From Acidimicrobiia bacterium (GTDB lineage Bacteria; Actinomycetota; Acidimicrobiia; IMCC26256; JAMXLJ01): a stretch of DNA of 37,750 nt. Every line of letters starts with the position of its first letter. The stretch's first letter is position 1. Both the position numbers and the translations under genes were made by a program. The notes beneath the pieces were generated by a model, which made no database searches, was not told where the DNA came from, and saw nothing but the letters and a program-made list of their open reading frames with translations. Below, in pieces: positions 276 to 23,850 of this stretch. The stretch is taken from assembly GCA_024281095.1 (NCBI GenBank), contig JAMXLJ010000018.1, forward strand, positions 1-37,750, written 5' to 3'.

Positions 276-3014
276 TCATGATGACGTCACACGCCGTCCC
301 GCTGAGCCGGTTCGCTTGCGGACGAGCAGCTTTCCGACCTCCCACACGATCAGAAGTCCGATCGCCGGAACCAACGACCACGCGAACTGGCGCATGTCGA
401 GCTCGGCGGTACCGAGAATGCGCCGCAGGGCATCCATCTGGGTGCACAGCACCGCAACGACGAACTCGCCGAGGGCCACCCAGTTCATCTGTTTGCTCTC
501 GAAGGCCGCGGTCGTCAGCGCCGTCGCCGTCTCACTCCGGCACTCGAACGCGGCGACGATGAGCATGAGCGCGAACGAGGTGAACGCCATGGATTGGCCG
601 ACGGCGACACTCCCGAAATGATGCTTACCGAGCTGGATCAAAGCGAGCATGCCCACGGACATCGCCAGCCCGACGAGCGAGACGGTAAGGATCAGCCCTC
701 GCGTCAGGACCGACTGGCCACGGGGCTCCGGGTGACGTGCCATGAGCCCGGGCGTCTCGAAGTCGAAGCCGAGCGCGAAGCCGAACGGCGCGTTGACGAG
801 GAAATGGATCCACAAGACCTGCGCGGGCGTGAACGGCTCGCCGGCCGCGATGTTGAACAGCGTCGCGCCGAGGAACGTGGCAACGAAGGCTACGAGAAGG
901 ACGAGCACGAAGCGGATGTACTTCGTGAGGTTGTCGTAGATCTTGCGGCCCTGCTCGACGGCGTAGACGATCGTGGCGAAGTTGTCGTCGGACAGGATCA
1001 TCCGCCCCGCGTTCTTCGCGACTTCGGTGCCGCTGCCCATTGCGATCCCGATGTCGGCCGCCTTGATGGCGGGCGCGTCGTTCACGCCGTCGCCGGTCAT
1101 CGCGACGACGTCGCCCCGCTTCTTGAGCGTCTCGGCCAGCATGACCTTGTGCTCCGGTGCCACCCGTCCCACGACGCCGATCCGGTCGATTCGCGCGAGC
1201 CGTTCTTCTTCGGACATCGCCGCGAAGTCGGCGCCGAGGATGGCTTCACCGGAGATGCCGACTTGTTTGGCGATCGCAGCGCCCGTCGTGACGTCGTCGC
1301 CCGTGACCATGCGCACGCGTATGTGTGCAGCCTGCGCGTTCGCGACCGCGGCCTTCGACTCGTCCCGCGGCGGATCCACCATGCCGACGAGGCTGGTCAT
1401 CTCGAGGTCCGTGACGTAGGCGAGCAGATCAGCCGACGGGTCGAACCGCTCCGGATCGATGTCGCGCACGGCCGCGGCCATGACCCGACGTCCTTCGCGC
1501 TCCATGCGCTCCATCTGCGCCTGTGCGCGATGGGCCAAGTCGTCGTCCCAGGTGATCGTCGCTCCTGCAGATCGAGCGGTCGTGGCCCGGCCCATGACGG
1601 CGGGCGCCGCGCCTTTGACGAAACAGCGGACCACGGGCCGTCCGGCGGCGTCGCGTGTCGTGTTGAACGTCGCCATGAGCTTGTAGGTCGGATCGAAGGG
1701 CAGGGTCGCGACCCGTGGCAGCTTCTCCCGCGTTCCGGCGATCTCGAGGCCGGCCTTGTACGCGAGCACGAGCAGCGCGCCCTCGGTCGGGTCGCCGACG
1801 ACGCGGCCGTCCACGAGCTCGGCGTCGTTCGCGATGAGATACGGGAGGATCGCGTCATCGAGCGTGTCTGTTGCGCCCGCGGCGTGCTGCACGGTTCCGT
1901 CGAGGCCGTAACCGATGCCGGAGATGGTGTACCGGTCCGTCGGGTCGACCACCTCGACGGCCGTCATCTGGTTCATCGTCAGGGTGCCGGTCTTGTCGGA
2001 GTTGATCGCCGACGTGAAGCCGAGCGTCTCGACGGAAGGTAAGTCCTTGACGATCGCGTTTCGCTTGGCGAGGTCGACACTGCCGAGCGACAAGATCACC
2101 TGTGTCACGGTAGGAAGCGCCTCGGGTATCGCGGCGATGGCGAGCGACACCGCGCTCACGAACAGTGCGTCCCACGCGCGGCCCCGGGCCCGACCGAGGA
2201 CGAACATCACGATCATGGTGAGTCCCGCGGCTGATGCGATCCACACGCTCAACCGGTTGAGCTCCCGTGTGAGCGGCGATTGCTCGACCGCCGTCGCGCG
2301 CAGCATTCCGGAGATCTTTCCCAGTTCGGTGTCTGCGCCCGTGGCGGTCACGACCATGGTGCCGCTGCCGTGCGTCACGGGCGTGTTCATGAACGCCATG
2401 TTCGACTGGTCGCCCGGCCCGAGCCCGTTCCCGCTGAGCGCACCGGCGTCCTTGGCGGCCGGCACACTCTCGCCCGTCAAGGCAGACTCGTCGATCTGCA
2501 GTGCGCTCGCAGCGACGATGCGGCCGTCGGCGGGCACCTGATCCCCGGCCGCGATGGTCACGACGTCGCCGACCACGAGTTGCTCGGCCGGCATGTCGCG
2601 ATCGACGCCGTCGCGCCGCACGCGCGCGCTCGCCTTCATCATCGACTTCAGCGCGTTCATCGCGCTCTCCGCCTTGCCCTGCTGGCGAAGGCCGACAACG
2701 GCGTTGAAGAGCGTGAGCAGCACCAGGACCACGGCGGTGCTCCACTCCTGGATCGCCAACGAAACGATCGCCGCGCCCGAGAGGATGAGCTGCATGTAGC
2801 TGCGGTACTCGTCGACGAACCGCCGCCACCCGGGGATAGCCGGCTCCTCCGGCAGCGCGTTGGGGCCGTTCGCAGCGAGCAGCTGATCCGCCGTCGCGGA
2901 CGACAGGCCGACCGCAGTGTCGACGCCGAGTGCGCTTTCGACCTCCTCCGGCGAATGTCTGTACCAGCCGGGTTCCGGCGCCGGTGCCGGCGGCTGTTCG
3001 ATCCGTATCGTCAT
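276..3014 (-). CDS. P-type ATPase, type II-like, cation uncertain
   Basis: This is a 912-residue membrane pump. An N-terminal cation-ATPase domain (about 15-70) is followed by the actuator TGES motif at 180-183, PEALP in M4 at 297-301, the phosphorylated aspartate D340 in DKTGT, and later the TGD and TGDGVNDAP hinge motifs. All catalytic residues are present, so it should hydrolyse ATP. By eye against SERCA, the M5/M6 calcium ligands are not kept: the M6 N-x-x-TD stretch reads HFLVNAP here, and the M5 Asn and Glu are hydrophobic. The glutamate in M4 remains. I therefore do not call it a calcium pump. Start is ATG with GGAAGAG immediately before it. Mycobacterial CtpF, a DosR target, is a functional comparison only. 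Palindromes lie upstream at 3147 and 3321. Confidence 0.9.
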   Translation of the reverse strand: MTIRIEQPPAPAPEPGWYRHSPEEVESALGVDTAVGLSSATADQLLAANGPNALPEEPAIPGWRRFVDEYRSYMQLILSGAAIVSLAIQEWSTAVVLVLLTLFNAVVGLRQQGKAESAMNALKSMMKASARVRRDGVDRDMPAEQLVVGDVVTIAAGDQVPADGRIVAASALQIDESALTGESVPAAKDAGALSGNGLGPGDQSNMAFMNTPVTHGSGTMVVTATGADTELGKISGMLRATAVEQSPLTRELNRLSVWIASAAGLTMIVMFVLGRARGRAWDALFVSAVSLAIAAIPEALPTVTQVILSLGSVDLAKRNAIVKDLPSVETLGFTSAINSDKTGTLTMNQMTAVEVVDPTDRYTISGIGYGLDGTVQHAAGATDTLDDAILPYLIANDAELVDGRVVGDPTEGALLVLAYKAGLEIAGTREKLPRVATLPFDPTYKLMATFNTTRDAAGRPVVRCFVKGAAPAVMGRATTARSAGATITWDDDLAHRAQAQMERMEREGRRVMAAAVRDIDPERFDPSADLLAYVTDLEMTSLVGMVDPPRDESKAAVANAQAAHIRVRMVTGDDVTTGAAIAKQVGISGEAILGADFAAMSEEERLARIDRIGVVGRVAPEHKVMLAETLKKRGDVVAMTGDGVNDAPAIKAADIGIAMGSGTEVAKNAGRMILSDDNFATIVYAVEQGRKIYDNLTKYIRFVLVLLVAFVATFLGATLFNIAAGEPFTPAQVLWIHFLVNAPFGFALGFDFETPGLMARHPEPRGQSVLTRGLILTVSLVGLAMSVGMLALIQLGKHHFGSVAVGQSMAFTSFALMLIVAAFECRSETATALTTAAFESKQMNWVALGEFVVAVLCTQMDALRRILGTAELDMRQFAWSLVPAIGLLIVWEVGKLLVRKRTGSAGRRVTSS

Positions 3015-3163: not shown

Positions 3164-3320
3164 AGGGTCGCTGTCAGCGGCGATGCCGGCACGACGAACT
3201 CCGCGTTCGCCCCGAAGTCGCCCGGGCTGCGCGCTCGCAGGGGAGTGCCGCGGCCACCGTCGGTTCCGTGCTCGACCTCATGGGTGAGCTGGCAGGACTC
3301 GGTCGCGAGAAGGTCGAGGA

Positions 3321-3337
3321 TCATCCAACCGGGGTGA
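3321..3337. promoter_or_regulatory. Operator-like palindrome, TCATCC-AACCG-GGGTGA
   Basis: This is a perfect match to TCAYCC-N5-GGRTGA, 56 nt upstream of the ATG at 3394. The short distance suggests it overlaps or abuts the promoter of the 3394-4137 gene pair. Confidence 0.75.
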
Positions 3338-3393
3338 TGGCAGACACCCGTTCGCGCGACACGCTCCGATCGGACCGGAAGGAAGGACATGAC

Positions 3394-3660
3394 ATGGCGA
3401 AGAACCACAACGGTGCGCCAGGGCTGCAGCTCAACAACCGGTTGTTGATCGGAAGTGCGGTTCTCGTCGGTGTGGCCGGGTTCGTTGGAGCGACCGGCCT
3501 GGTCCTCGCGGGCGCTGCGTTCACGTCCGCGGGGCGTCAGTGGGTTCGTTCGCTGGACCACCCTCCGAGTGAGACGGCGAAAACCATGGCCAACCGGCTC
3601 GTGGCCGCGACGTCGGCCGGTACGAAGGCCTGGCGGAGTGAGGCAACCCTCGGCAGATGA
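3394..3660 (+). CDS. Small membrane protein of unknown family
   Basis: The 88-residue product begins MAKNHNGAPGLQL and has one long hydrophobic segment at about 18-45 (alternating Val/Gly/Ala, possibly a hairpin). A polar tail follows with DHPPSETAKTMANRL. I chose the ATG at 3394 because GGAAGGA lies 6-8 nt before it and the upstream in-frame extension looks non-coding. I do not recognise the family. It is the first gene of an apparent pair with the DUF7144 gene 24 nt downstream, and a perfect palindrome lies 56 nt upstream. A role in the membrane under the same stress control as its neighbours is inferred. Confidence 0.7.
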   Translation: MAKNHNGAPGLQLNNRLLIGSAVLVGVAGFVGATGLVLAGAAFTSAGRQWVRSLDHPPSETAKTMANRLVAATSAGTKAWRSEATLGR

Positions 3661-8190: not shown

Positions 8191-8523
8191 CTACTCGCCG
8201 GGCGTCGAAGCCTCTTCGCCGGCGACGATCACCACACCGAGGGCCTCGGTAACGCCGACGGCTGCAGAAACCACCCGGGGAGTACCGATGATCGGTGCAA
8301 TGGCCACGAGAACGTCCTGCATCTGCTCGACTGTGACGCCGGATTCGACGGCCGCGCCGAGGTTGGCCAGATACGACAGCGGCCGCGCGTCCATTGCGGC
8401 GAGCGCGGCGAGGCGCACCAGCATGAGCTCGTTGTTGTCGAGGTTGCAACGTTCGATCGACTCCGCCGTGAGTGCGGCGACCGTGTCGAGAAGGGGGTGT
8501 TCGGCTGTTGTTACTTCGGACAT
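8191..8523 (-). CDS. Carboxymuconolactone decarboxylase (CMD/AhpD-like) family protein
   Basis: The 110-residue product carries the helical CMD fold, seen in LVRLAALAAMDARPLSYLAN and VTVEQMQDVLVAIAPIIGTPRV as separate pieces. No CxxC pair is visible, so an AhpD-type peroxidase role is not supported. Close relatives are annotated only as CMD-family proteins. I start it at the ATG at 8523 (MSEVTTAEH) because GAGGAG lies 7 nt upstream; the longer open frame from 8598 adds unlikely sequence. It is followed by PPK2 with a 52-nt gap and preceded by a tiny membrane peptide gene. Confidence 0.78.
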   Translation of the reverse strand: MSEVTTAEHPLLDTVAALTAESIERCNLDNNELMLVRLAALAAMDARPLSYLANLGAAVESGVTVEQMQDVLVAIAPIIGTPRVVSAAVGVTEALGVVIVAGEEASTPGE

Positions 8524-8658
8524 GAGTCCACTCCTCGCGTGAAAGGTGGCCGCACGGGTCGTGCCGCCGTCACCGTTGCACCAAGCCACCGTCAGCATGT
8601 GGCCTCGGCCAACTGGACGTCGTCCCCCAGAAGGGATGACCGTGCCGAAGGGTCCGTT

Positions 8659-8778
8659 CTACGGAGGCTCGATTGCGTCGACGAAGGCGCGACATCGTCG
8701 TTCGACATACATCGCTGCGGCGATGACACCTGCGATCGCCGTGAGCATGGAAATCAGGATGGTCCGCCTGATCAGCAC
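8659..8778 (-). CDS. Tiny single-helix membrane peptide (39 residues), putative
   Basis: Beginning at the GTG at 8778, the product is one hydrophobic helix (LIRRTILISMLTAIAGVIAAA) followed by a short polar tail ending AFVDAIEPP. A GGAAGGGG site lies 5 nt before the GTG, which favours this start over the ATG at 8835. The perfect palindrome at 8847-8863 is 68 nt upstream, the usual distance in this window. It would be the first gene of the operon with CMD, PPK2 and SulP. No family is recognised and coding status is an inference from start signals and hydrophobicity. Confidence 0.45.
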   Translation of the reverse strand: MLIRRTILISMLTAIAGVIAAAMYVERRCRAFVDAIEPP

Positions 8779-8846
8779 GGCCTGCCCCTTCCGCGAGCAA
8801 CGACCACCGGCAGGGGGAGCGTCGTGCAGCAGCATCCGGCCCGACA

Positions 8847-8863
8847 TCACCCGAGACGGGTGA
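8847..8863. promoter_or_regulatory. Operator-like palindrome, TCACCC-GAGAC-GGGTGA
   Basis: A perfect copy, with one further matched base pair on each side (A...T). It lies 68 nt before the GTG at 8778 and so heads the leftward operon that includes PPK2 and SulP. Confidence 0.78.
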
Positions 8864-8978
8864 TCCCGGCCGGTCGGAGTGACACGGATGTCTCAGGCGG
8901 CGAACGCGGACTGCGCCATCCTGCGGTATACCCGGCGCGGATGAAGCGTGGCCTTCCGGTTCCCTGACGTGGTCCAAG

Positions 8979-8995
8979 TCATCCGGTCCGGGCGA
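8979..8995. promoter_or_regulatory. Operator-like palindrome, TCATCC-GGTCC-GGGCGA (one mismatch)
   Basis: One position differs from the consensus, yet GTCATC and GATGAC at the outer edges (8978-8983 and 8994-8999) also form a perfect wider palindrome. It sits 64 nt upstream of the ATG at 9060. Confidence 0.6.
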
Positions 8996-9059
8996 TGACT
9001 GCGCTACGGGGTGAGCTCACGATGCGGGGGACCCAAGACAAGGTGCTCGAGGAGCCGGG

Positions 9060-9230
9060 ATGCCCTGGTATACGACGTTCGGCGTCATCTATTTCGTGCT
9101 GGGTCTCACGCTTGGCGTGATCAGCATCCGCAGGGGCCATTGGATCATGTTCCTTCTCGGGTTCGTCGTCCCGTTCCTGTGGCTGGTCGGCGCGATGATG
9201 CCGCCCACGCGGCGTGCGCGCGTTCTCTGA
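9060..9230 (+). CDS. Small two-helix membrane protein (56 residues)
   Basis: The product begins MPWYTTFGVIYFVLGLTLG and has two hydrophobic segments, about 5-20 and 27-46, separated by a short basic loop (SIRRGHW), with a basic tail PTRRARVL. GAGGAG lies 5 nt before the ATG. I do not recognise a family. A near-consensus palindrome is 64 nt upstream and the next gene begins 11 nt after its stop, so the two form an operon. It is too short for many gene finders. Confidence 0.65.
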   Translation: MPWYTTFGVIYFVLGLTLGVISIRRGHWIMFLLGFVVPFLWLVGAMMPPTRRARVL

Positions 9231-9241
9231 AGGAGGCCGCA

Positions 9242-9613
9242 ATGCGCGGGTCCCGTCTTCGGCGTGGGCTCCCCTCGAGGGAGCGCTGCGAAGCCGTGTC
9301 GCCGGTAGATGCGATGGTTGCCGCGATCGATGCCGCGCTGCGTTTCGCCGGTTCTCGAAAGCTGCTTGCTCGGAAGGACGTCGGCGGCGTCTTCGCGATG
9401 CTCCGAGTGGCGTCGCCCGTGGCCGATGAGCCCGGGGCCGTGTGCGAAGCCCTGGACCGTGCTCAGAGATCGTTTGCGGGCGACGACGTGATCTCGGGCA
9501 CGGCCCTGGTCGACCGTCTCCTCGATGTCCGGCTCGCGGTGCGTGAGCCGCTCGAGCAGTCGCGGGTCGTGAATTTGGAGGCTTCGGGCGCATTTCGACT
9601 CGTGCGCATGTGA
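9242..9613 (+). CDS. Hypothetical 123-residue soluble protein
   Basis: The product starts MRGSRLRRGLPSRERCEAV and continues as an alternating helical, Ala/Leu/Arg-rich sequence with no membrane segment. A recognisable domain is not apparent. The start is set by AGGAGG at 9231-9236, 5 nt before the ATG at 9242, directly after the stop of the 56-residue membrane protein. The longer open frame from 9011 is not supported. Co-transcription with the upstream small membrane protein is likely. Confidence 0.6.
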   Translation: MRGSRLRRGLPSRERCEAVSPVDAMVAAIDAALRFAGSRKLLARKDVGGVFAMLRVASPVADEPGAVCEALDRAQRSFAGDDVISGTALVDRLLDVRLAVREPLEQSRVVNLEASGAFRLVRM

Positions 9614-9662: not shown

Positions 9663-9872
9663 CTAGATCTCGTTCTTGTCGCTGACGCGCTGTACGTCAA
9701 CGAGCACGAGGCCGAGATCGCTGATCTGCTCGAGTGCCCGGTGGAGCATCGCCTGATCCGGCACTTCGGCCCGCAAGACGGTCTCGGTCGAGATCTCGAA
9801 TCCTTCGAACGCGATTGCGACGCGCTCGCCGATCGCGCCCTTGATCCTGATCTCGTACTCCGCGACGCTCAC
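9663..9872 (-). CDS. Small paralogous protein B of a tandem pair (69 residues)
   Basis: From the GTG at 9872 the product reads VSVAEYEIRIKGAIGER and ends with a LVLVDVQRV stretch. It shares YE-[IL]-R-x-x-G, a VLRA-x-VPDQA-x-LH block and LG-x-x-LVDV with the 74-residue protein just upstream, so the two arose by tandem duplication. Similar small proteins occur widely in actinobacteria without a known function. The start codon overlaps the upstream stop (GTGA), a translational coupling sign. Start from the longer frame at 9950 is unlikely for that reason. Confidence 0.7.
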   Translation of the reverse strand: MSVAEYEIRIKGAIGERVAIAFEGFEISTETVLRAEVPDQAMLHRALEQISDLGLVLVDVQRVSDKNEI

Positions 9873-10093
9873 CGCTTGCCACCTGATCGTCGTGCGGGTG
9901 ACCGCGCCGGTCGAACATCGACGAGCTCGACCCCGAGGGTGTCGATCCACGCGAGGAGTCCGTGCAGGGCGGCCTGGTCGGGCACGCCCGCCCGTACAAC
10001 GCTTTGAACCCTCACGCGCGCGTGGGTGAGGGTCTCCGGAAGACGATCGGAGACGTCACCCTGTACCCGGAGCTCGTACACGAATCCCGACAT
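9869..10093 (-). CDS. Small paralogous protein A of a tandem pair (74 residues)
   Basis: The ATG at 10093 begins MSGFVYELRVQGDVSDRL, with an AGAGG site a few bases upstream. The core VVRAGVPDQAALHGLLAW followed by LGVELVDVR is shared with the downstream paralog, while its basic C-terminal tail (ARSPARRSGGKR) is unique. A perfect palindrome lies 64 nt upstream at 10158. The family is small, soluble and of unknown function. The two paralogs overlap by 4 nt and probably act together, perhaps as a heteromer (inference). Confidence 0.72.
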   Translation of the reverse strand: MSGFVYELRVQGDVSDRLPETLTHARVRVQSVVRAGVPDQAALHGLLAWIDTLGVELVDVRPARSPARRSGGKR

Positions 10094-15077: not shown

Positions 15078-17528
15078 TCAGATGAGGTCTTGTCGCCGCG
15101 CGGTCTCGACAGCATCGGCTCGGGATTGCACGCCGAGTTTGCGATAGATGCTTCTCAGATGGGTCTTCAGCGTGTTCTTCGAGATGAAGAGATCAGCGGC
15201 GATCTGAGCGTTGCTGGCCGGCCCGGCGAGCCGTTGCAGTACGACGAGCTGCCGACCGCTCAAGGGCGCTGCGGCTTCGAGCTCGGGCGGCTCAGGTGGC
15301 GTGGGCGGCATGATCTGCGCACGTTCTTCGAAGAAGACCAGCACGAAGCCTTCCGGCTCGGCCAGCTCCATCGCCCGCCGTACGTGGCGGTCCGACGCTG
15401 CGGCCGTGCGGCTCGTCCGAGCGAGCAACAGCTCCCGCACGATCCGCTCTCGCAGCGTCGACAGGTGCAGCGATGCGAGACGCAGGTGCGCGAGGTCCCG
15501 ATCGGTATCCGCCAGGAGGCGGAGCTCGAGCAGCGCTCGTTCGCTGCTTTCCGGAAGCGACGCGGTGAGCGCTGCCGCGCGTTCCCGATCACCTGCCGCG
15601 AGGCGGACCTGGGCTTCCAGAGCGTCGACACGATGCGGTAGGGCCGGCCCACCCGAACGCTCGGCGCACCGCCGCGCCTCAGCGAGGTGGCGAAACGCGC
15701 GGTCGAAATCACCCCTGCGCCAGGCGAGCCGTACCCGACCGAGCTCGGCGAAGCTTGCGTGCAATGTCGAGTCAAGCCTGGCCGCCAACTCGTGGAGACG
15801 ATCGAGCTCGATGCCCGCTGCTTCCAATTGGTCACGTTCGAGGTGCACCGCCGCGAGTGCGAGGCGGGCGTCGAGCGTGCCGAAGTGCCGAGGGGTGAGC
15901 AGGCCGGCGTGGCGAAGCGCGCGTTCAGCGAGCCTGCTCGCCTCGCTGAGCGTTCCCCGGGCCACCTCGACGTTCGCCCGCAGCGCCGGCACGACCACGA
16001 GGGACGCAACCTCGGAGAGGTTGTGGTGCGCCGCGAGAAGATCGACCATCGCTCGCGCCGCCTCGACCTCACCGAGCACCAGGTGCGAACGGGCAATGTT
16101 GACCGGTAGCCGCTCGAAGACGATGTCGTCCCGTTCGAGGTCCGCGTCGATCTGGCGCAGCGGCGGGATGTCCCGTAACGCGCCTTCGGCGTCACCACGT
16201 AGCGCGGAGACCTGATGTCGCATCGAGGCAAGCCGGCGCCGCTGAAGGGTGAGGTCCTCCGTGTCGAGCTGGGCTTCGGCTCGCCGCAGCCACGTTTCGG
16301 CACCCTCGAAGTCCGACGCGAGGGTGAGTGCGACGACGAAACGCGCCATGCGCTCGGGGTCGTTCGCGACGAAGGAAGGTGGGATCGCGTGCAGCCAGTC
16401 ACCGGGGTCGTTCTGCAGTGACGCCGCTTCGGCCGCCGCGACGGCGAGGTCGAACGCTTGCGTGGTGTCACCGGCTGCCAACATGTGCGCGATGGCAAGG
16501 CGCACGTCACCTTCGGCTGCGAACCAGCGCCCCGCCGTGGCGTGAAGCCGTCGCAAGCGCATCGGATTCCGGCGTTCAAGGTCGGTGACGACGACGTCGC
16601 GAAGGAGCTCGCGGTAGCGGAACCATTCTCGCCGGTTGTCGAGGGCGACCAGAAGGTTGTCGTCCTCCATCTCTCGGAGCATTGCCTGTGCATCGGCGCG
16701 CGAAGTGAGCTCGCGGCACAGAACCGCGTTGAGACGCTCGACCACGCACGTCGCTCGAACGAAGTCCTGGATGTCCCTCGACTGCCTGTCGACGACCTCG
16801 CGCATGAGGTACTCCGCGACCGCGCTGGTGCTTGCGGCGGCGCGCTGCTGACGATCGGGTGTTCCCTGCAACGCGCGCAAGGACCGCGCGACGCGCACGA
16901 GGCCCATGGACCATCCTTCAGTACGGTCCAGGAGCCACGCCGCGATATCGGTATCCAGGTCCAGCCCTTCGAACGTCGAGAGCAGCGCAGCGGCCTCGTC
17001 GCGCCGGAACGCGAGGTCCGCTTCGGAGACTTCGCCGGCCACGCCTCGAGCCCGCCAGCGTCCCACGGGAAGAGCTGGGCGTCGTCGACCCACGAGTACG
17101 AGATGCAGCATCCCAGGAGCACGCTCCACGAGTTGTTCGAGGCTTACGTGAACGCGTCGATCCTCGATGAGGTGAAGGTCGTCGATCACGACGATCGGAT
17201 GTACAGCCGTGTGCCCGACAGCGTTGAGGAGTGCAGGAACCAGGACGTCATCCGAGGCCACGGCGGCGCGCGAGGTTTCCGGCCCAGATCGGCCCGCCCC
17301 GGGCAGGACCGCGCCCACCGAGGAGAACGCATGCCGCCAGAACCCAAGGAGGTGATCGTCCGCGGCGTCGACCGTCAGCCACGCAGCGGCCGAAGGAGCG
17401 CGCGTCAGCCAATCGCGAACGGCGGTGGTCTTTCCCCATCCCGCGGCCGCGGTCACAAGGGTGACCGGACGAGAGTCCGTCGGTGCCAACAGCGGGTCGA
17501 GCCGAGGACGCGGCACGGTGTCGTTCAT
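15078..17528 (-). CDS. LuxR-family LAL/STAND transcriptional regulator 1 (816 residues)
   Basis: This is a large ATP-dependent (MalT-like) regulator: an N-terminal P-loop at 27-35 (AAAGWGKTT), Walker B VVIDDLH, a winged-helix and tetratricopeptide-like middle, and a C-terminal LuxR-type helix-turn-helix with the recognition segment ISKNTLKTHLRSIYRKLGV. It acts as a nucleotide-switched DNA-binding protein; the signal is unknown. Its ATG overlaps the TGA of the upstream potassium channel gene (ATGA at 17525-17528), so both are made together and lie behind the palindrome at 18399. It is a candidate regulator and possible self-target of the window motif. Confidence 0.9.
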   Translation of the reverse strand: MNDTVPRPRLDPLLAPTDSRPVTLVTAAAGWGKTTAVRDWLTRAPSAAAWLTVDAADDHLLGFWRHAFSSVGAVLPGAGRSGPETSRAAVASDDVLVPALLNAVGHTAVHPIVVIDDLHLIEDRRVHVSLEQLVERAPGMLHLVLVGRRRPALPVGRWRARGVAGEVSEADLAFRRDEAAALLSTFEGLDLDTDIAAWLLDRTEGWSMGLVRVARSLRALQGTPDRQQRAAASTSAVAEYLMREVVDRQSRDIQDFVRATCVVERLNAVLCRELTSRADAQAMLREMEDDNLLVALDNRREWFRYRELLRDVVVTDLERRNPMRLRRLHATAGRWFAAEGDVRLAIAHMLAAGDTTQAFDLAVAAAEAASLQNDPGDWLHAIPPSFVANDPERMARFVVALTLASDFEGAETWLRRAEAQLDTEDLTLQRRRLASMRHQVSALRGDAEGALRDIPPLRQIDADLERDDIVFERLPVNIARSHLVLGEVEAARAMVDLLAAHHNLSEVASLVVVPALRANVEVARGTLSEASRLAERALRHAGLLTPRHFGTLDARLALAAVHLERDQLEAAGIELDRLHELAARLDSTLHASFAELGRVRLAWRRGDFDRAFRHLAEARRCAERSGGPALPHRVDALEAQVRLAAGDRERAAALTASLPESSERALLELRLLADTDRDLAHLRLASLHLSTLRERIVRELLLARTSRTAAASDRHVRRAMELAEPEGFVLVFFEERAQIMPPTPPEPPELEAAAPLSGRQLVVLQRLAGPASNAQIAADLFISKNTLKTHLRSIYRKLGVQSRADAVETARRQDLI

Positions 17529-18673: not shown

Positions 18674-21325
18674 ATGTCCTCGCAGCCCGCCGCCAATCAA
18701 TGGCGTCCCCTCCCGAGCACGGAGCCTCCAGAGCTCGGGGCGTTGGGCGCGAGCAGCACGGCTCCGCTGCTCCCTGAGCGGTTCGTCCGGCGACCCCGAG
18801 TGGTCGCATCCTTCGCTTCCGCAGCCGGCGCGCGGCTGACAGTCGTCACCGGCCCGGCGGGCGTCGGGAAGACGATGGCGGTGCGGGAGTGGCTGCTCCA
18901 CGAGAACGCGTCCGTCGCCTGGCTGACGGTCGAGTCGCGGGACAACGAGTTGGGCGCGTTCTGCAACGATGTTCTTGCCGCGATGCAGGTGCAGGTGCCG
19001 CCCTCCAAATCAGTATTTCAGGCGGGTGGGCCGAGGCATACCGGGCGTGGCGGCCTTGCCCGTGTGCTGCACGACGTGCAGCGGCCCGACCGCCCGACGG
19101 TGCTCGTCCTCGACGACTTCCACGTCGCCAAGAGCTCCGCAGTCATGAGCGAGCTCCAAACCTTGTTGGACCTCAAGCCTGAGTGGCTGCACGTCGTCGT
19201 TGTCAGTCGCTCCGATCCACCCCTACCACTGGCGCGGTGGCGCCTCCGGGGTGAGCTCCACGAGATCCGAGAGGCGGACCTCCGGTTCCGACGGGACGAG
19301 GCCGCGGCCTATCTCGCAACATTCACCGATCTCGTACTGGAGGAATGGGCGACCAACACCCTGATCGCGCGGACCCACGGATGGATCGCGGGGCTGCAGC
19401 TCGCTGCGATCTCGCTTCGCGCGAGCGCGGACACGGCCGCGTTCCTCGCGCGCTTCGACGGAACCGACCGGTTCATCGCGGACTTCCTGCTCGACGAAGT
19501 GCTCGCGTACCTCCCCGCCGACGTCCTCGACTTCCTGCTCGAGACGTCGGTGCTCGATCGATTCGACGCGGAGCTGTGCAACACCATGACCGGACGCTCC
19601 GACGCCGCGCTCCTGCTCCGTCGTATCGAGGCGGCGAACCTCTTCCTCGTCCGGCTCCCGGCGGATGGGACGTGGTTCCGGTACCACCCCCTGTTCCGCG
19701 ATCTGTTGCGATTCGAGTTGGAGTCGCGGAGACCGGACCGCGCCCGAGAGCTCTCTCAGCGCGCCGCGCGGCACTTCACCGCGCGAGGTGAGAACGCTGC
19801 CGCTGTCCGCCTGCTCCACGCGGCCGGCGATGACGACGCCGCGTTCTCCTTGGCGCTGCGATTCGGAACGGAGCTGAGCCCGGGTGCGCAGGCCGTAGCC
19901 CGGGCGTGTGCCGGCGCACTGTCGTCGAACTTCATCGCCGACGACGTGGGGCGCATGCTGCAGTTCGCCGACCTGCTTCGCAAGGCGGGTCGCCTCAATG
20001 ACTCGGCGGTCTGGCTCGAGCGCGCCAGCGCCGGGAGCCGCCGGCGCCCCGACGACGCTGCGGTTCGCGCGCCCTTGGAGGCGATCTGGAGCAAGTGGTA
20101 CCAGGCACAAGGCGACTGCGACGCGGCCATCGAGCACGCGAATCGAGCGCTCCGGCTCGCACGCCCCGAGCAGCTGACCGGTGACCCCGGGTTCGAGGGG
20201 TTGTCGTTGTTCCTCGCCCGCGCGTGGCTGCTGCACTCGGACCCTGAACGAGCCCGTGTTGCACTCGAATCTGTGCCGCGAACGAGCATCGACCCGTTGA
20301 CGACCGAGGCCGCGGTTCCGGCGCTCCTCGCCCGGATCGCCGCGCTCAGGGGGCAGCTTCGGGAGGCGAGCGTCTTCGCCGAGCGAGCGCTCTGGATGGT
20401 CGAGGCGCTCGGCGACGAACGTCACCCCGCAACGATGGACGCGCTACTGGCCCGAGCCCGCGTTCGGCGCGAACGAGACCAACTCGCGGAGGCTATCCAA
20501 GACGCGGACGCCGAGCTCGCGCTCGCGGCAGACCTCGCCTCACACCCGTACATCGTGCTCGGCGAGATCGAGCGATGCCGGATCATCGCCGCACTGGACG
20601 GACCGGCGGCCGGCCTCGAGCGCCTCGACGCCATACAAGGTTCAACCTCACAGCGCCTGGTCGGATCCTTGGCCGAGGCGCTCCGTGTCCTCGAGATCGA
20701 GCTCTCCGCACGGACGGGCGACCACCGACGTGCCGCACACCTGACGAGCACGCTCCCGGCGGGACTGCAGCGCGAGATGCTCGCCGCCGCAGGCGAGATT
20801 GCGGGCGGGCGGATCGAGGACGCCCGCGACCGGTTGGCCGCGCTCGTGCCAATTCGTCTGCTCGACCGCATCCGGGTCGAGCTGCTCCGCGCGGCCGTGG
20901 CGGTCAATGTGGACGATCGGCGACGGCACGTGGCTACAGCCGCCGCGCTCGCCGCGCCCGAAGGCTTCCGGAGGATCTTCATCGAGAAGGGTGCGGCGGT
21001 GTCTCGCGCGCTCCGCTCCCTCGCGGCATCGGCCGACGTCGAACCGCCGGCCCTCGAGCTCCTCGCCGCTGTAGCTCCGCTGCCGCGGGTGCAGGTCGAC
21101 ACGCGCATGGTGTACCGGCTGACCGAACGTGAGCAGTCGATTCTGCGCTTCTTCCCAACGCAGTTGAGCTACCAGGACATCGCGACCGAGCTCCTCATCT
21201 CTGTGAACACGCTCAAGAGTCACGTCAAGAGCATTCATCGCAAACTGGGTGTCTCCTCCCGGGCCGCGGCGATCGACGAGGCCCGGCGACTCGGCATGCT
21301 CGGACGCGCTCACGCCACCGCATGA
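18674..21325 (+). CDS. LuxR-family LAL/STAND transcriptional regulator 2 (883 residues)
   Basis: Same architecture as LAL1: a P-loop GPAGVGKT at 60-67, Walker B VLVLDDFH, a winged helix and repeat-rich middle, and a C-terminal LuxR helix-turn-helix with ISVNTLKSHVKSIHRKLGV. Its recognition segment is close to that of LAL1 (ISKNTLKTHLRSIYRKLGV), so the two may read similar DNA. The ATG at 18674 has no clear ribosome site. It is divergent from the channel-LAL1 operon with the palindrome at 18399 between them. The signal and targets are not known. Confidence 0.9.
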   Translation: MSSQPAANQWRPLPSTEPPELGALGASSTAPLLPERFVRRPRVVASFASAAGARLTVVTGPAGVGKTMAVREWLLHENASVAWLTVESRDNELGAFCNDVLAAMQVQVPPSKSVFQAGGPRHTGRGGLARVLHDVQRPDRPTVLVLDDFHVAKSSAVMSELQTLLDLKPEWLHVVVVSRSDPPLPLARWRLRGELHEIREADLRFRRDEAAAYLATFTDLVLEEWATNTLIARTHGWIAGLQLAAISLRASADTAAFLARFDGTDRFIADFLLDEVLAYLPADVLDFLLETSVLDRFDAELCNTMTGRSDAALLLRRIEAANLFLVRLPADGTWFRYHPLFRDLLRFELESRRPDRARELSQRAARHFTARGENAAAVRLLHAAGDDDAAFSLALRFGTELSPGAQAVARACAGALSSNFIADDVGRMLQFADLLRKAGRLNDSAVWLERASAGSRRRPDDAAVRAPLEAIWSKWYQAQGDCDAAIEHANRALRLARPEQLTGDPGFEGLSLFLARAWLLHSDPERARVALESVPRTSIDPLTTEAAVPALLARIAALRGQLREASVFAERALWMVEALGDERHPATMDALLARARVRRERDQLAEAIQDADAELALAADLASHPYIVLGEIERCRIIAALDGPAAGLERLDAIQGSTSQRLVGSLAEALRVLEIELSARTGDHRRAAHLTSTLPAGLQREMLAAAGEIAGGRIEDARDRLAALVPIRLLDRIRVELLRAAVAVNVDDRRRHVATAAALAAPEGFRRIFIEKGAAVSRALRSLAASADVEPPALELLAAVAPLPRVQVDTRMVYRLTEREQSILRFFPTQLSYQDIATELLISVNTLKSHVKSIHRKLGVSSRAAAIDEARRLGMLGRAHATA

Positions 21326-21880: not shown

Positions 21881-22063
21881 TCAGATGCCCACCGCGGTTG
21901 CCAGCCGCGTCACCGAGCGCTCGACCACCGGCACGAGGACGATGGCGGTGATCGTGCCGACAAGTCGGTTGGTTCGCCGCCCCACATAGGCGCCCACTGC
22001 GGCGCCCACCATGACGCCGAGCACCTCGGCGGCAAGTGACGAGTCGTGGGGCGGTCGCGTCAT
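21881..22063 (-). CDS. Small glycine-zipper-like membrane protein (60 residues)
   Basis: The product from the ATG at 22063 is MTRPPHDSSLAAEVLG, then a GVMVGAAVGAYVGRR segment with Gly every fourth residue, and a second helix (LVGTITAIVLVPVVER). The Gly pattern fits helix-helix packing in the membrane. No family is assigned. It follows the 70-residue gene by 20 nt, so it is probably co-transcribed. A ribosome site is not obvious. The larger frame up to 22363 is not used. Confidence 0.55.
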   Translation of the reverse strand: MTRPPHDSSLAAEVLGVMVGAAVGAYVGRRTNRLVGTITAIVLVPVVERSVTRLATAVGI

Positions 22064-22083: not shown

Positions 22084-22296
22084 CTAATCCACCCAGTCCA
22101 GCCACGCCTTCAGCCGCCGCCACACATGGCCCGCTTCGAGCCCGAGCCACAACGCGATGATCGCGAGATTGATGAAGCGGACTTCCGCGCGCAGGATCCA
22201 GGGCACGTTCTCGTGCCCGGCTGGTGCCGGCGTCGGGGTGCCGACGGGTGGAACAACGACGGTGCGCCGGGGCCGGTGGGCCACGAACTGCGACAT
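22084..22296 (-). CDS. Small single-helix protein (70 residues)
   Basis: The product begins MSQFVAHRPRRTVVVPPVG, with a Pro-rich N-terminus, a hydrophobic stretch (FINLAIIALWLGLEAG) and an aromatic tail HVWRRLKAWLDWVD. The ATG at 22296 has GAGAGGGCAGAG directly upstream. A perfect palindrome lies 63 nt upstream at 22360, at the end of the MFS gene. Unknown family; probably a membrane-associated small protein forming an operon with the 60-residue gene. Confidence 0.62.
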   Translation of the reverse strand: MSQFVAHRPRRTVVVPPVGTPTPAPAGHENVPWILRAEVRFINLAIIALWLGLEAGHVWRRLKAWLDWVD

Positions 22297-22359
22297 CTCT
22301 GCCCTCTCGCTCGCCGGAGCCCAACCCGTGCAGGCTGAACCGTCCGGACGGCGGCGTCG

Positions 22360-22376
22360 TCATCCATCCCGGGTGA
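22360..22376. promoter_or_regulatory. Operator-like palindrome, TCATCC-ATCCC-GGGTGA
   Basis: A perfect copy that overlaps the last codons and stop of the MFS gene. It is 63 nt before the leftward ATG at 22296, so it would give the two small genes a promoter of their own behind the GH15-MFS operon. Confidence 0.74.
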
Positions 22377-23850
22377 TGTCGCCGGCTACGGGCCTGATGG
22401 TCGGTGCCTTCGCCTTCTCGCGAGGGAGGCGGAGGGCGGTGGCGAGACCGATCACCGCGATGACGACGAGCGTGCTCAGGGCCAGCACGTAGTGCCAGTT
22501 CCCTTTGACGACAGGCGACACGAGCACGGACCCGACCAAGGCTGTGCCGAGCGACGAGCCCAGGTTCGACACGCTCCTGGAGACGCCGGAGATCTCACCT
22601 TGATCCTCCTCCGGGAAGGCCGACTGGACGACGTTCACGGATGCCGTCAGCATCACGCCGGCACCGAGGCCCACGGCGAGGAGGCCGGGGACGTAGGCGA
22701 GGAAGCTCGACGTGGCCCGGGCCAGCAGCAACAACAGGCCGAGGCCCACTGCCGTCGTGGCGAATCCCGCCCAGATCAGGGTGCGCTGCGGACGCCGCTT
22801 CGCGAGCCGTTCTGCGACCGCGGACGCCATCAGGATGCCTGCGGTCGCGGGAGTCAACGTCAGCCCGGTGCGGATCGCACTGAAGTGGCGCACGGTTTGG
22901 AGGTACACGGAGATAACGAAGAAACCGCCTTGCATGATGAGCCATTGGAGGTTCTGCGTCACGAGGCCGAGGTTCGATGTGCGATTCCGGAGCACGCGCA
23001 TCGACACCAGCGGTTGCTTCCCTCGACGCTCGTCGGACCGGATGTGCAGGAAGAACCAGCCGAGGAAGACCGCGCCAAGGCCGAGGAACAGCCACACCGG
23101 CGAGATGCCGCCCTCGTGGATGATGACCGTGTTGCCCAGCGAGAAGTCCTTGCGGGCCTTGAACCAGCCGTAGTCGCCGCTCTGCAGGACGCCCACCACG
23201 ACGAAGACGAGGCCGGTGGCCGACAACAGCGTGCCGGTGATGTCGAAATGAGGCTTGGCGCGAGCCGCGGGCGGGCTCGGAACCCGGAGCGTGAGGAAGA
23301 TGACCGCGGCGACGATTGCGACCTGCAGTCCGAACGACGCCCGCCAGCTGACCGTGCTGGTGATCACACCGCCGATCAGCGGACCGGCGGCCGCGCCGAT
23401 GCCCGCGGCTCCGCTGACCACGCCGAAGAACTTCGCCCGTGTCTGGATGTCACTGAACAGGACCGTGACGAGGATGTAGATGGGCGGGATCATGAGCGCC
23501 GATCCCACGCCCTCGAAGAGCGAGTAGCCGATGGTCAGCGACGTGATTCCCTGCGAGAGGGAGGCGATGAGCCCACCGGTGCCGTAGATGACGAGGCCGA
23601 GCAGGAAGCAGCGTTTCCGGCCCCAGATGTCGGTCAACTTGCTGCCGGGGATCATCAACGCCGCCATCGTGAGCGTGAAGAGGGTGATCGCGGTCTGGAC
23701 GCCACGGACGTCGGTGCCGATGTCCTTGGCAATGCTGTCGACAGCGACGTTCATCGTGGTTCCGGCATAGCTGGCGACGAACTGCGCCAGTGCGAGCGGC
23801 AACACGAAGGTCCACGGCGAAAGCGAAGCCTTCGATGTGGGTTCGGTCAT
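22360..23850 (-). CDS. MFS transporter, DHA2 (EmrB/QacA-like) type
   Basis: The 496-residue product has about 14 hydrophobic segments and the MFS motif A (GSKLTDIWGRKR, about 69-80). A later GAAAGPLIGGVI stretch matches motif C of drug exporters. These proteins export drugs or metabolites with proton exchange; the substrate is unknown. It starts 11 nt after the stop of the GH15 gene and so belongs to the same leftward operon. The 3' end contains a palindrome that serves the genes downstream. Confidence 0.9.
   Translation of the reverse strand: MTEPTSKASLSPWTFVLPLALAQFVASYAGTTMNVAVDSIAKDIGTDVRGVQTAITLFTLTMAALMIPGSKLTDIWGRKRCFLLGLVIYGTGGLIASLSQGITSLTIGYSLFEGVGSALMIPPIYILVTVLFSDIQTRAKFFGVVSGAAGIGAAAGPLIGGVITSTVSWRASFGLQVAIVAAVIFLTLRVPSPPAARAKPHFDITGTLLSATGLVFVVVGVLQSGDYGWFKARKDFSLGNTVIIHEGGISPVWLFLGLGAVFLGWFFLHIRSDERRGKQPLVSMRVLRNRTSNLGLVTQNLQWLIMQGGFFVISVYLQTVRHFSAIRTGLTLTPATAGILMASAVAERLAKRRPQRTLIWAGFATTAVGLGLLLLLARATSSFLAYVPGLLAVGLGAGVMLTASVNVVQSAFPEEDQGEISGVSRSVSNLGSSLGTALVGSVLVSPVVKGNWHYVLALSTLVVIAVIGLATALRLPREKAKAPTIRPVAGDITRDG

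What the first reader, a model, noticed from the sequence alone, without database searches (positions are those of the whole stretch)
8659..9230. Very small membrane proteins as first genes of motif-controlled units
A 39-residue single-helix peptide (8659-8778) and a 56-residue two-helix protein (9060-9230) lie directly behind operators, each with a good ribosome site. The 88-, 70- and 60-residue proteins elsewhere are similar. Small membrane proteins often modulate transporters or sensors, so these may tune the neighbouring transporters. Gene finders commonly miss them.
Basis: partly seen in the sequence, partly recalled or inferred. Interest (0 to 1): 0.5.

Follow-up and report, generated by a model that had tools for sequence, protein, structure and literature searches.

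The report
Conserved small membrane protein, shared promoter
A 56-residue two-helix membrane protein is a real, conserved gene, in many cases switched on from a promoter type shared by several groups of actinobacteria, while the 39-residue peptide next to it has the same kind of promoter but no known relative and remains unproven.

Summary
Observation largely right. The 39-residue frame (minus strand, GTG start) and the 56-residue frame (plus strand) start 67 and 63 nt behind a 19-bp palindrome, RTCAYCC-N5-GGRTGAY. I add a second element: a -10-like nAnnnT hexamer 21-22 nt past the palindrome (20 of 23 units), which puts the palindrome near -44, an activator position. The combined promoter occurs 22 times in this genome against 1 reversed control, 16 against 0 in its congener.
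The 56-aa protein is real: 12 genomes have it, omega is below 1 among the nine members compared, its turn R-x-G-H-W is invariant in those nine, and 7 of 12 keep the promoter. No Pfam, NCBIfam or PDB match. Likely regulator: a MalT-like LAL protein (full-length match in 5 of those 7 genomes, 0 of the other 5).
The 39-aa frame has the promoter but no relative in 395 searched genomes of the class: a candidate, not shown.
Tuning of neighbouring transporters is not supported: none of the window's transporters lies beside the gene in 11 relatives. In four of the 11 it lies near other proteins of the same cluster, so an envelope-stress role is likelier.

The parts
9060..9230 (+). 56-aa two-helix membrane protein, first gene of its unit; conserved family, no Pfam/NCBIfam match
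8978..8996 (+). operator of the 56-aa unit (GTCATCCGGTCCGGGCGAT, 1 mismatch), 63 nt before the start codon
9018..9023 (+). -10-like hexamer CACGAT, 21 nt behind the operator
8659..8778 (-). 39-aa single-helix frame (GTG start), the only candidate first gene of its unit; no relatives found
8846..8864 (-). operator (perfect palindrome, ATCACCCGTCTCGGGTGAT read on the minus strand), 67 nt before the 39-aa start
8818..8823 (-). -10-like hexamer GACGCT, 22 nt behind the 8846 operator (the one-base-longer spacing); no exact hexamer in the + direction, though a one-mismatch one is listed there
8191..8523 (-). next gene behind the 39-aa frame: carboxymuconolactone decarboxylase-family (CMD) protein, with its own operator at 8622-8640 and CATGCT hexamer
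9242..9613 (+). 123-aa frame 11 nt behind the 56-aa gene with a strong ribosome site; no ortholog in the congener loci examined
3394..3660 (+). 88-aa membrane protein, first gene behind operator 3320-3338 (gap 55, CACGCT); 61% identical ortholog in the congener, also behind an operator
22084..22296 (-). 70-aa frame, first gene behind operator 22359-22377 (gap 62, CAGCCT); a 60-aa frame 21881-22063 follows it
34911..37190 (+). LAL (ATPase with GerE helix-turn-helix) regulator, candidate activator of the operator; one of three LAL proteins in the window

Best explanation
The 56-aa frame is a genuine small membrane protein (two-helix hairpin with a conserved R-x-G-H-W turn) and, in part of its range, a member of an uncharacterised regulon of Actinomycetota. 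Its promoter has two parts at fixed spacing: a 19-bp palindrome RTCAYCC-N5-GGRTGAY and, 21-22 nt further, a -10-like nAnnnT (mostly G/C-A-N-N-N-T). A dimeric LuxR-type regulator, most likely a MalT-like LAL protein of the same cluster, binds the palindrome at about -44 and activates transcription. Translation starts some 25-40 nt into the message. The product sits in the membrane as one element of an envelope-stress toolkit, working with or beside other membrane proteins of that set (DUF308/HdeD-type, the 449-aa type, LPG-synthase-TM type) rather than on an adjacent transporter. The 39-aa frame probably is a further first gene of the same kind, found so far in this genome only. Shown here: sequence, conservation, selection, promoter layout, co-occurrence, partial gene linkage. 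Inferred: activation rather than repression, LAL as the binder, membrane insertion, the function.
For: Conservation in 12 genomes, the window's included, with 17 invariant columns among the nine aligned members. Omega below 1 in all 35 pairs with finite dS. Operator (<=2 mismatches, within 200 nt) with nAnnnT at exactly +22 to +27 in 7 of 12 members (window, L002, L034, L035, L036, L037, L054); the reversed pattern reaches <=2 mismatches in 0 of 12. Five of those seven were in the set that revealed the hexamer; L036 and L037 were not. A-N3-T at +23/+27 in 15 of 23 units and one base later in 5 more, mean 0.82 per offset. Combined promoter, <=1 mismatch, both strands, against reversed control: 22/1, 16/0, 11/0, 10/0, 6/0, 4/0 in G000, G001, G062, G063, G061, G329. 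LAL: match reaching the helix-turn-helix in 5 of the 7 genomes with the promoter, 0 of the 5 without. Operators at <=2 mismatches in 8 of 19 LAL-hit loci (1.5-kb flanks), all eight in those five genomes, reversed control 0 of 19; two pairs of the eight share one operator, and L062 has only a 2-mismatch site. The MalT box GGA[TG]GA (passage of PMC9628970) resembles the half site GGRTGA. In G062 the LAL lies in an operator-headed row DUF7144 - CMD - LAL. Linkage: L055 and L056 have the 56-aa gene beside a homolog of the window's 449-aa protein, with a DUF308/HdeD-type (L055) or SHOCT (L056) homolog near; L039 and G001 have the LPG-synthase-TM-type homolog near.
Against: No expression, binding or proteomic data. 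Five of 12 genomes have the 56-aa gene without the promoter at <=2 mismatches. G063 and G064 have the promoter but no LAL match reaching the helix-turn-helix; G063, G271 and G401 do have LAL-like proteins with shorter matches, so the 5-of-7 against 0-of-5 contrast concerns this LAL type only. The window's own LAL locus 34911-37190 (L059) has no operator within 1.5 kb at <=2 mismatches, while the other two LAL loci do. In 7 of 11 relatives no other window protein lies in the flanks examined. The 39-aa frame lacks any relative. In 3 of the 23 units the hexamer is missing. No partner or phenotype points to the function.
Confidence: 0.72

Rival explanations
1. The small proteins tune the neighbouring transporters (SulP, cation ATPase), as AcrZ does AcrB.
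For: Small size, predicted membrane location, transporters in the same cluster; precedent AcrZ (abstract in listing); a Sap/SfLAP protein beside the 56-aa gene in L055.
Against: No SulP, cation ATPase or MFS homolog of the window beside the 56-aa gene in 11 relatives; SulP is on the opposite strand in the window.
Confidence: 0.15
2. The palindrome is a repressor site or the site of another regulator (for instance of the TetR type), and the LAL link is incidental.
For: Palindromes of this size serve many dimeric regulators; no LAL match reaching the helix-turn-helix in G063 and G064, which have the promoter.
Against: Fixed 21-22 nt distance to the -10-like hexamer puts the site at about -44, not over the start; half site resembles the MalT box; LAL loci carry operators.
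Confidence: 0.2
3. The 39-aa frame is not translated; the 8846 promoter simply serves the genes behind it (CMD, PPK2), and the frame is a chance reading frame in the leader.
For: No relatives in 61 genomes or 395 genomes of the class; GTG start; an antisense frame scores 9.1 bits against 14.1; 39 codons without a stop are not rare by themselves.
Against: It is the only candidate first frame at the canonical distance, and CMD has its own promoter; such a frame is found at about 0.15% of sites per strand.
Confidence: 0.42
4. The 56-aa protein is a divergent member of a known small-protein family (PLDc_N, Pmp3/YqaE type).
For: Similar size and layout (recalled); PLDc_N proteins lie in the same cluster.
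Against: Best Pfam E-value among the nine members is 0.18; profile comparison with the cluster's PLDc_N proteins gives nothing (probability 0.2%); no PDB sequence match at E<=10. Pmp3 was not tested beyond the Pfam scan.
Confidence: 0.08

Closest known systems
DosR (DevR) dormancy regulon of Mycobacterium
   Same: Gene content includes a possible sulfate transporter (Rv1739c) and a cation transport ATPase (ctpF) (table passage of PMC4082495); the window has SulP and a P-type cation ATPase.
   Different: Candidate regulator here is an ATP-binding LAL protein, not a two-component response regulator; the DosR box was not compared (recalled only).
MalT / LAL regulons
   Same: Regulators with an ATPase domain and a GerE helix-turn-helix, two of the three with a MalT-type TPR match; MalT box GGA[TG]GA close to the half site GGRTGA.
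   Different: Inverted repeat with 5-bp spacer, and stress/envelope-type genes rather than maltose or antibiotic genes.
MgrB
   Same: Small membrane protein encoded within the regulon of a stress system (abstract of PMC8404706 in listing).
   Different: No sequence relation tested or seen; partner of the 56-aa protein unknown.
SCO6993 of Streptomyces coelicolor (LAL)
   Same: LAL regulator that binds palindromes, also in its own promoter (passages of PMC9628970).
   Different: No consensus could be derived for its sites; it represses antibiotic genes.

Membership tests
Selected protein-coding gene (56-aa) | Purifying selection on the frame in relatives | tested here: met
   omega 0.11-0.72 in 35 of 36 pairs of nine members, the remaining pair with infinite dS
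Selected protein-coding gene (39-aa) | Conservation of the frame in relatives | tested here: not met
   only itself at E<=0.01 among 61 genomes (next best 0.011) and among 395 genomes of the class
LAL-controlled regulon | LAL regulator co-occurs with the operator | tested here: inconclusive
   match reaching the helix-turn-helix in 5 of 7 genomes with the promoter and 0 of 5 without
LAL-controlled regulon | Binding of the LAL protein to the palindrome | not testable with these tools
   needs gel shift or footprint
DosR regulon | DosR-type response regulator in the cluster | tested here: inconclusive
   the only regulators found among the window proteins scanned with Pfam are three LAL proteins; not every frame was scanned and DosR itself was not searched for
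PLDc_N small membrane proteins | Match to PF13396 or to the cluster's PLDc_N proteins | tested here: not met
Transporter-modulating small proteins | Conserved linkage to a transporter gene | tested here: not met
   window transporters beside it in 0 of 11 relatives; a Sap/SfLAP protein beside it in L055, the only relative whose neighbour was scanned with Pfam
Transporter-modulating small proteins | Physical interaction with a transporter | not testable with these tools
   needs pull-down or genetics

The most novel reading that the evidence does not exclude
The 56-aa hairpin is a membrane sensor or anti-activator for the soluble LAL ATPase: in resting membrane it tethers and silences the LAL protein through its conserved R-x-G-H-W loop, and envelope stress releases it, giving a feedback loop like MgrB but acting on an ATPase-type activator (compare MalK on MalT, recalled). 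The genomes with the gene but without a full match to this LAL type speak against it as the only role.
Probability: 0.07. Interest if true: 0.8.

Novelty: new member of a known kind. Interest (0 to 1): 0.5.

Why it matters
It gives a small-protein family for which the database searches made here found no model, together with a promoter that controls it in several groups of actinobacteria. The two-part promoter predicts the start, strand and first gene of a unit, so small genes can be looked for by their promoter rather than by length. The cluster resembles the dormancy set of mycobacteria in part of its content but seems to use a different class of regulator, which can be tested directly.

Tried and rejected
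Pfam, NCBIfam and PDB sequence searches for the 56-aa protein gave nothing credible (best NCBIfam hit SCO2097 family, E 0.015, 15.6 bits against a cut-off of 110). Profile comparison with PLDc_N proteins: no similarity. Plasmid collection: no match. Relatives of the 39-aa frame: none; the ten outside hits (E 0.011-0.94) all lie in open frames of 272 aa or more and were taken as chance. CMD ortholog in G001 and G035: none at E<=0.001 (the tool warns that an empty answer without a known positive shows little), so the 39-aa neighbourhood could not be compared in the congener. Literature: the two half sites together gave 347 papers, of which I saw a 15-row listing with unrelated titles; MalT + LuxR + Solirubrobacter + regulon gave 0 papers; LAL regulator + palindromic + Actinobacteria gave 3, listing seen and one read by passages. 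Structure search with the hairpin model was not run, since two short helices would match too much.

Corrected while checking: I had first written that the gene's neighbours differ in every relative; searches show shared cluster neighbours in 4 of 11, and the text now says so. I had also halved the counts (in notebook entry 1 too); they are 166 and 32.

Rows dropped before counts: of the 13 matches the first three were kept (the other ten had E 0.02-0.67); the hits G219 and G291 (E 6e-5 and 1e-4, in open frames of 268 and 271 aa) were dropped; repeat fetches of one gene (window L001/L053; G001 L002/L015/L041; G035 L003/L016/L038/L042; L034/L049; L035/L052) count once. The 23 units were picked by me, by eye, mostly for a nearby start codon and before the hexamer was known. 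In one search one reversed-control site (L002, 4 mismatches) also has an nAnnnT at the right place.

Full report
The frames. Both small frames exist at the stated coordinates. 9060-9230 (plus strand) encodes MPWYTTFGVIYFVLGLTLGVISIRRGHWIMFLLGFVVPFLWLVGAMMPPTRRARVL with a good ribosome site. 8659-8778 is on the minus strand and starts with GTG. Codon scores against a table trained on 17 long frames of the window are 27.1 bits for the 56-aa and 14.1 bits for the 39-aa frame; the latter's best rival frame reaches 9.1.

The operator. RTCAYCC-N5-GGRTGAY occurs 166 times at <=2 mismatches in the 4.39-Mb genome against 32 for the reversed pattern; 7 of the 9 perfect copies lie in this window. In the congener G001 there are 19 at <=1 mismatch against 0; 10 of the 19 are on contigs C12 and C43, parts of which carry orthologs of much of the window.

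A second promoter element. Aligning 23 operator-headed units on the operator end shows A+T peaks at +23 and +27: A at +23 with T at +27 in 15 of 23 and one base later in 5 more, mean 0.82 per offset. This nAnnnT is a -10-like hexamer. It puts the transcription start near +34 and the centre of the palindrome near -44, an activator position (inference from general promoter knowledge). In the window 18 operator-hexamer pairs at <=2 mismatches were found. The 8846 site has an exact hexamer only towards the 39-aa frame. Genome-wide the combined pattern (<=1 mismatch, both strands, spacing 21 only) gives 22 against 1 reversed control in G000, 16/0 in G001, 11/0 in G062, 10/0 in G063, 6/0 in G061, 4/0 in G329, and in the other ten genomes searched G035 2/1, G009 4/4, G020 0/0, G004 2/1, G039 1/0, G271 4/2, G401 1/1, G064 1/1, G065 1/2, G066 1/0. 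A palindrome can be counted in both directions there, so the numbers are sites and directions, not units.

The 56-aa family. Relatives: G001 (64%), G035 (taken to be the same contig as L038 by length and sequence), six further named MAGs (L034 Solirubrobacterales, L035 Solirubrobacteraceae, L036 Streptosporangiaceae, L037 labelled Acidobacteriaceae, L039 Acidimicrobiaceae, L040 Actinobacteria), and G329, G271, G401 (L054-L056): 12 with the window. It is rare: 6 of 396 phylum genomes match at E<=1e-4, two of them doubtful; 3 of 58 genomes of the order match. Among nine aligned members 17 columns are invariant, with R-x-G-H-W in the turn; L054-L056, outside that alignment, keep G-H but not the whole motif. 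Omega is below 1 in all pairs with finite dS (dS is large in many pairs, so the values are rough). AlphaFold2 predicts two helices, 2-24 and 28-46.

Promoter conservation. Within 200 nt upstream, 7 of 12 members have the operator at <=2 mismatches, and all 7 have the hexamer at exactly +22 to +27 (CACGAT, GACGCT, GAGGCT, GAGGCT, CAGGCT, CACTGT, GACACT in window, L002, L034, L035, L036, L037, L054). The other five have no site at <=2 mismatches; the reversed pattern reaches <=2 in none. Distance to the chosen start codon is 58-67 nt in five and 119 and 125 nt in L036 and L037. L036 and L037 played no part in finding the hexamer; the other five did.

The regulator. The LAL protein 34911-37190 has a match reaching its helix-turn-helix in G000, G001, G062, G061 and G329, all with the promoter in front of the 56-aa gene. 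G063 and G064 have the promoter without such a match, and G035, G065, G066, G271, G401 have neither; G063, G271 and G401 do have shorter LAL matches. Operators at <=2 mismatches lie in 8 of the 19 LAL-hit loci (1.5-kb flanks) and the reversed pattern in none; the LAL loci of the two middle genes share one operator in the window and another one in G001. The locus of 34911-37190 itself has none. In G062 the order behind two operators is DUF7144, CMD, LAL. The MalT box quoted in PMC9628970 (passages only), GGA[TG]GA, resembles the half site. LAL is therefore the likeliest regulator, but which of the three, and whether it binds, is open.

The 39-aa frame. It is the only candidate first frame behind the 8846 promoter, and a frame of that quality at that distance is found at about 0.15% of sites per strand (the figure includes the frames under test). 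But it has no relative, and CMD, its neighbour, was not found in G001 and G035. I put translation at about 0.58.

Neighbours and function. The 34 window proteins were compared with the flanks of the 11 relatives. Four share cluster proteins: G001 (the two small proteins 9663-10093 and the LPG-synthase-TM type), L039 (LPG-synthase-TM type), L055 (DUF308/HdeD type and the 449-aa type, the latter directly behind the 56-aa gene) and L056 (449-aa type and SHOCT type). Seven share none in the stretch held. No SulP, cation ATPase or MFS homolog of the window appears in any of the 11; L055 has a Sap/SfLAP protein just upstream of the 56-aa gene. The 449-aa type has no Pfam match. L039, L055 and L056 lack the operator, so the protein keeps company with this membrane set even without the promoter. 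The window also holds a P-type cation ATPase, SulP, PPK2, a diacylglycerol-kinase-type protein, an ion-channel protein, DUF7144, PLDc_N and SHOCT proteins, GH15 and DUF2252. PMC4082495 (table passage) lists a sulfate transporter and ctpF in the DosR regulon, hence the comparison. The likeliest reading is an envelope or dormancy stress set in which the 56-aa hairpin is one membrane element, possibly a partner of the 449-aa type.

Noticed in passing
window 15078-17528, 18674-21325, 34911-37190: Three LAL (MalT-like) regulators in one 37-kb cluster; the congener loci hold matches of 49%, 50% and 56% identity to the three.
   Followed up: partly
window 9663-9872 and 9869-10093 (minus): Two overlapping genes for small related proteins (69 and 74 aa), conserved as a pair in the congener (73% and 61%) beside the 56-aa gene; no Pfam match.
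   Followed up: partly
L055 1477-3141, L056 177-1665: 56-aa gene next to a homolog (28-30%) of the window's 449-aa membrane protein in two genomes without the operator at <=2 mismatches: a possible functional pair.
   Followed up: partly
window 276-3014 and L018 3-269: The last 89 residues of the P-type ATPase recur at 97% identity at the start of contig C76 of the same genome, with a similar operator behind them: duplication or strain variation in the assembly.
   Followed up: no
L037: A contig labelled Acidobacteriaceae carries the 56-aa gene with the same operator-hexamer promoter; transfer or a binning error.
   Followed up: no
L021 3184-3451: In the congener a short frame behind a perfect operator resembles the C-terminal membrane segment of the window's 70-aa frame (43% over 21 aa, E 0.04; weak).
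   Followed up: partly
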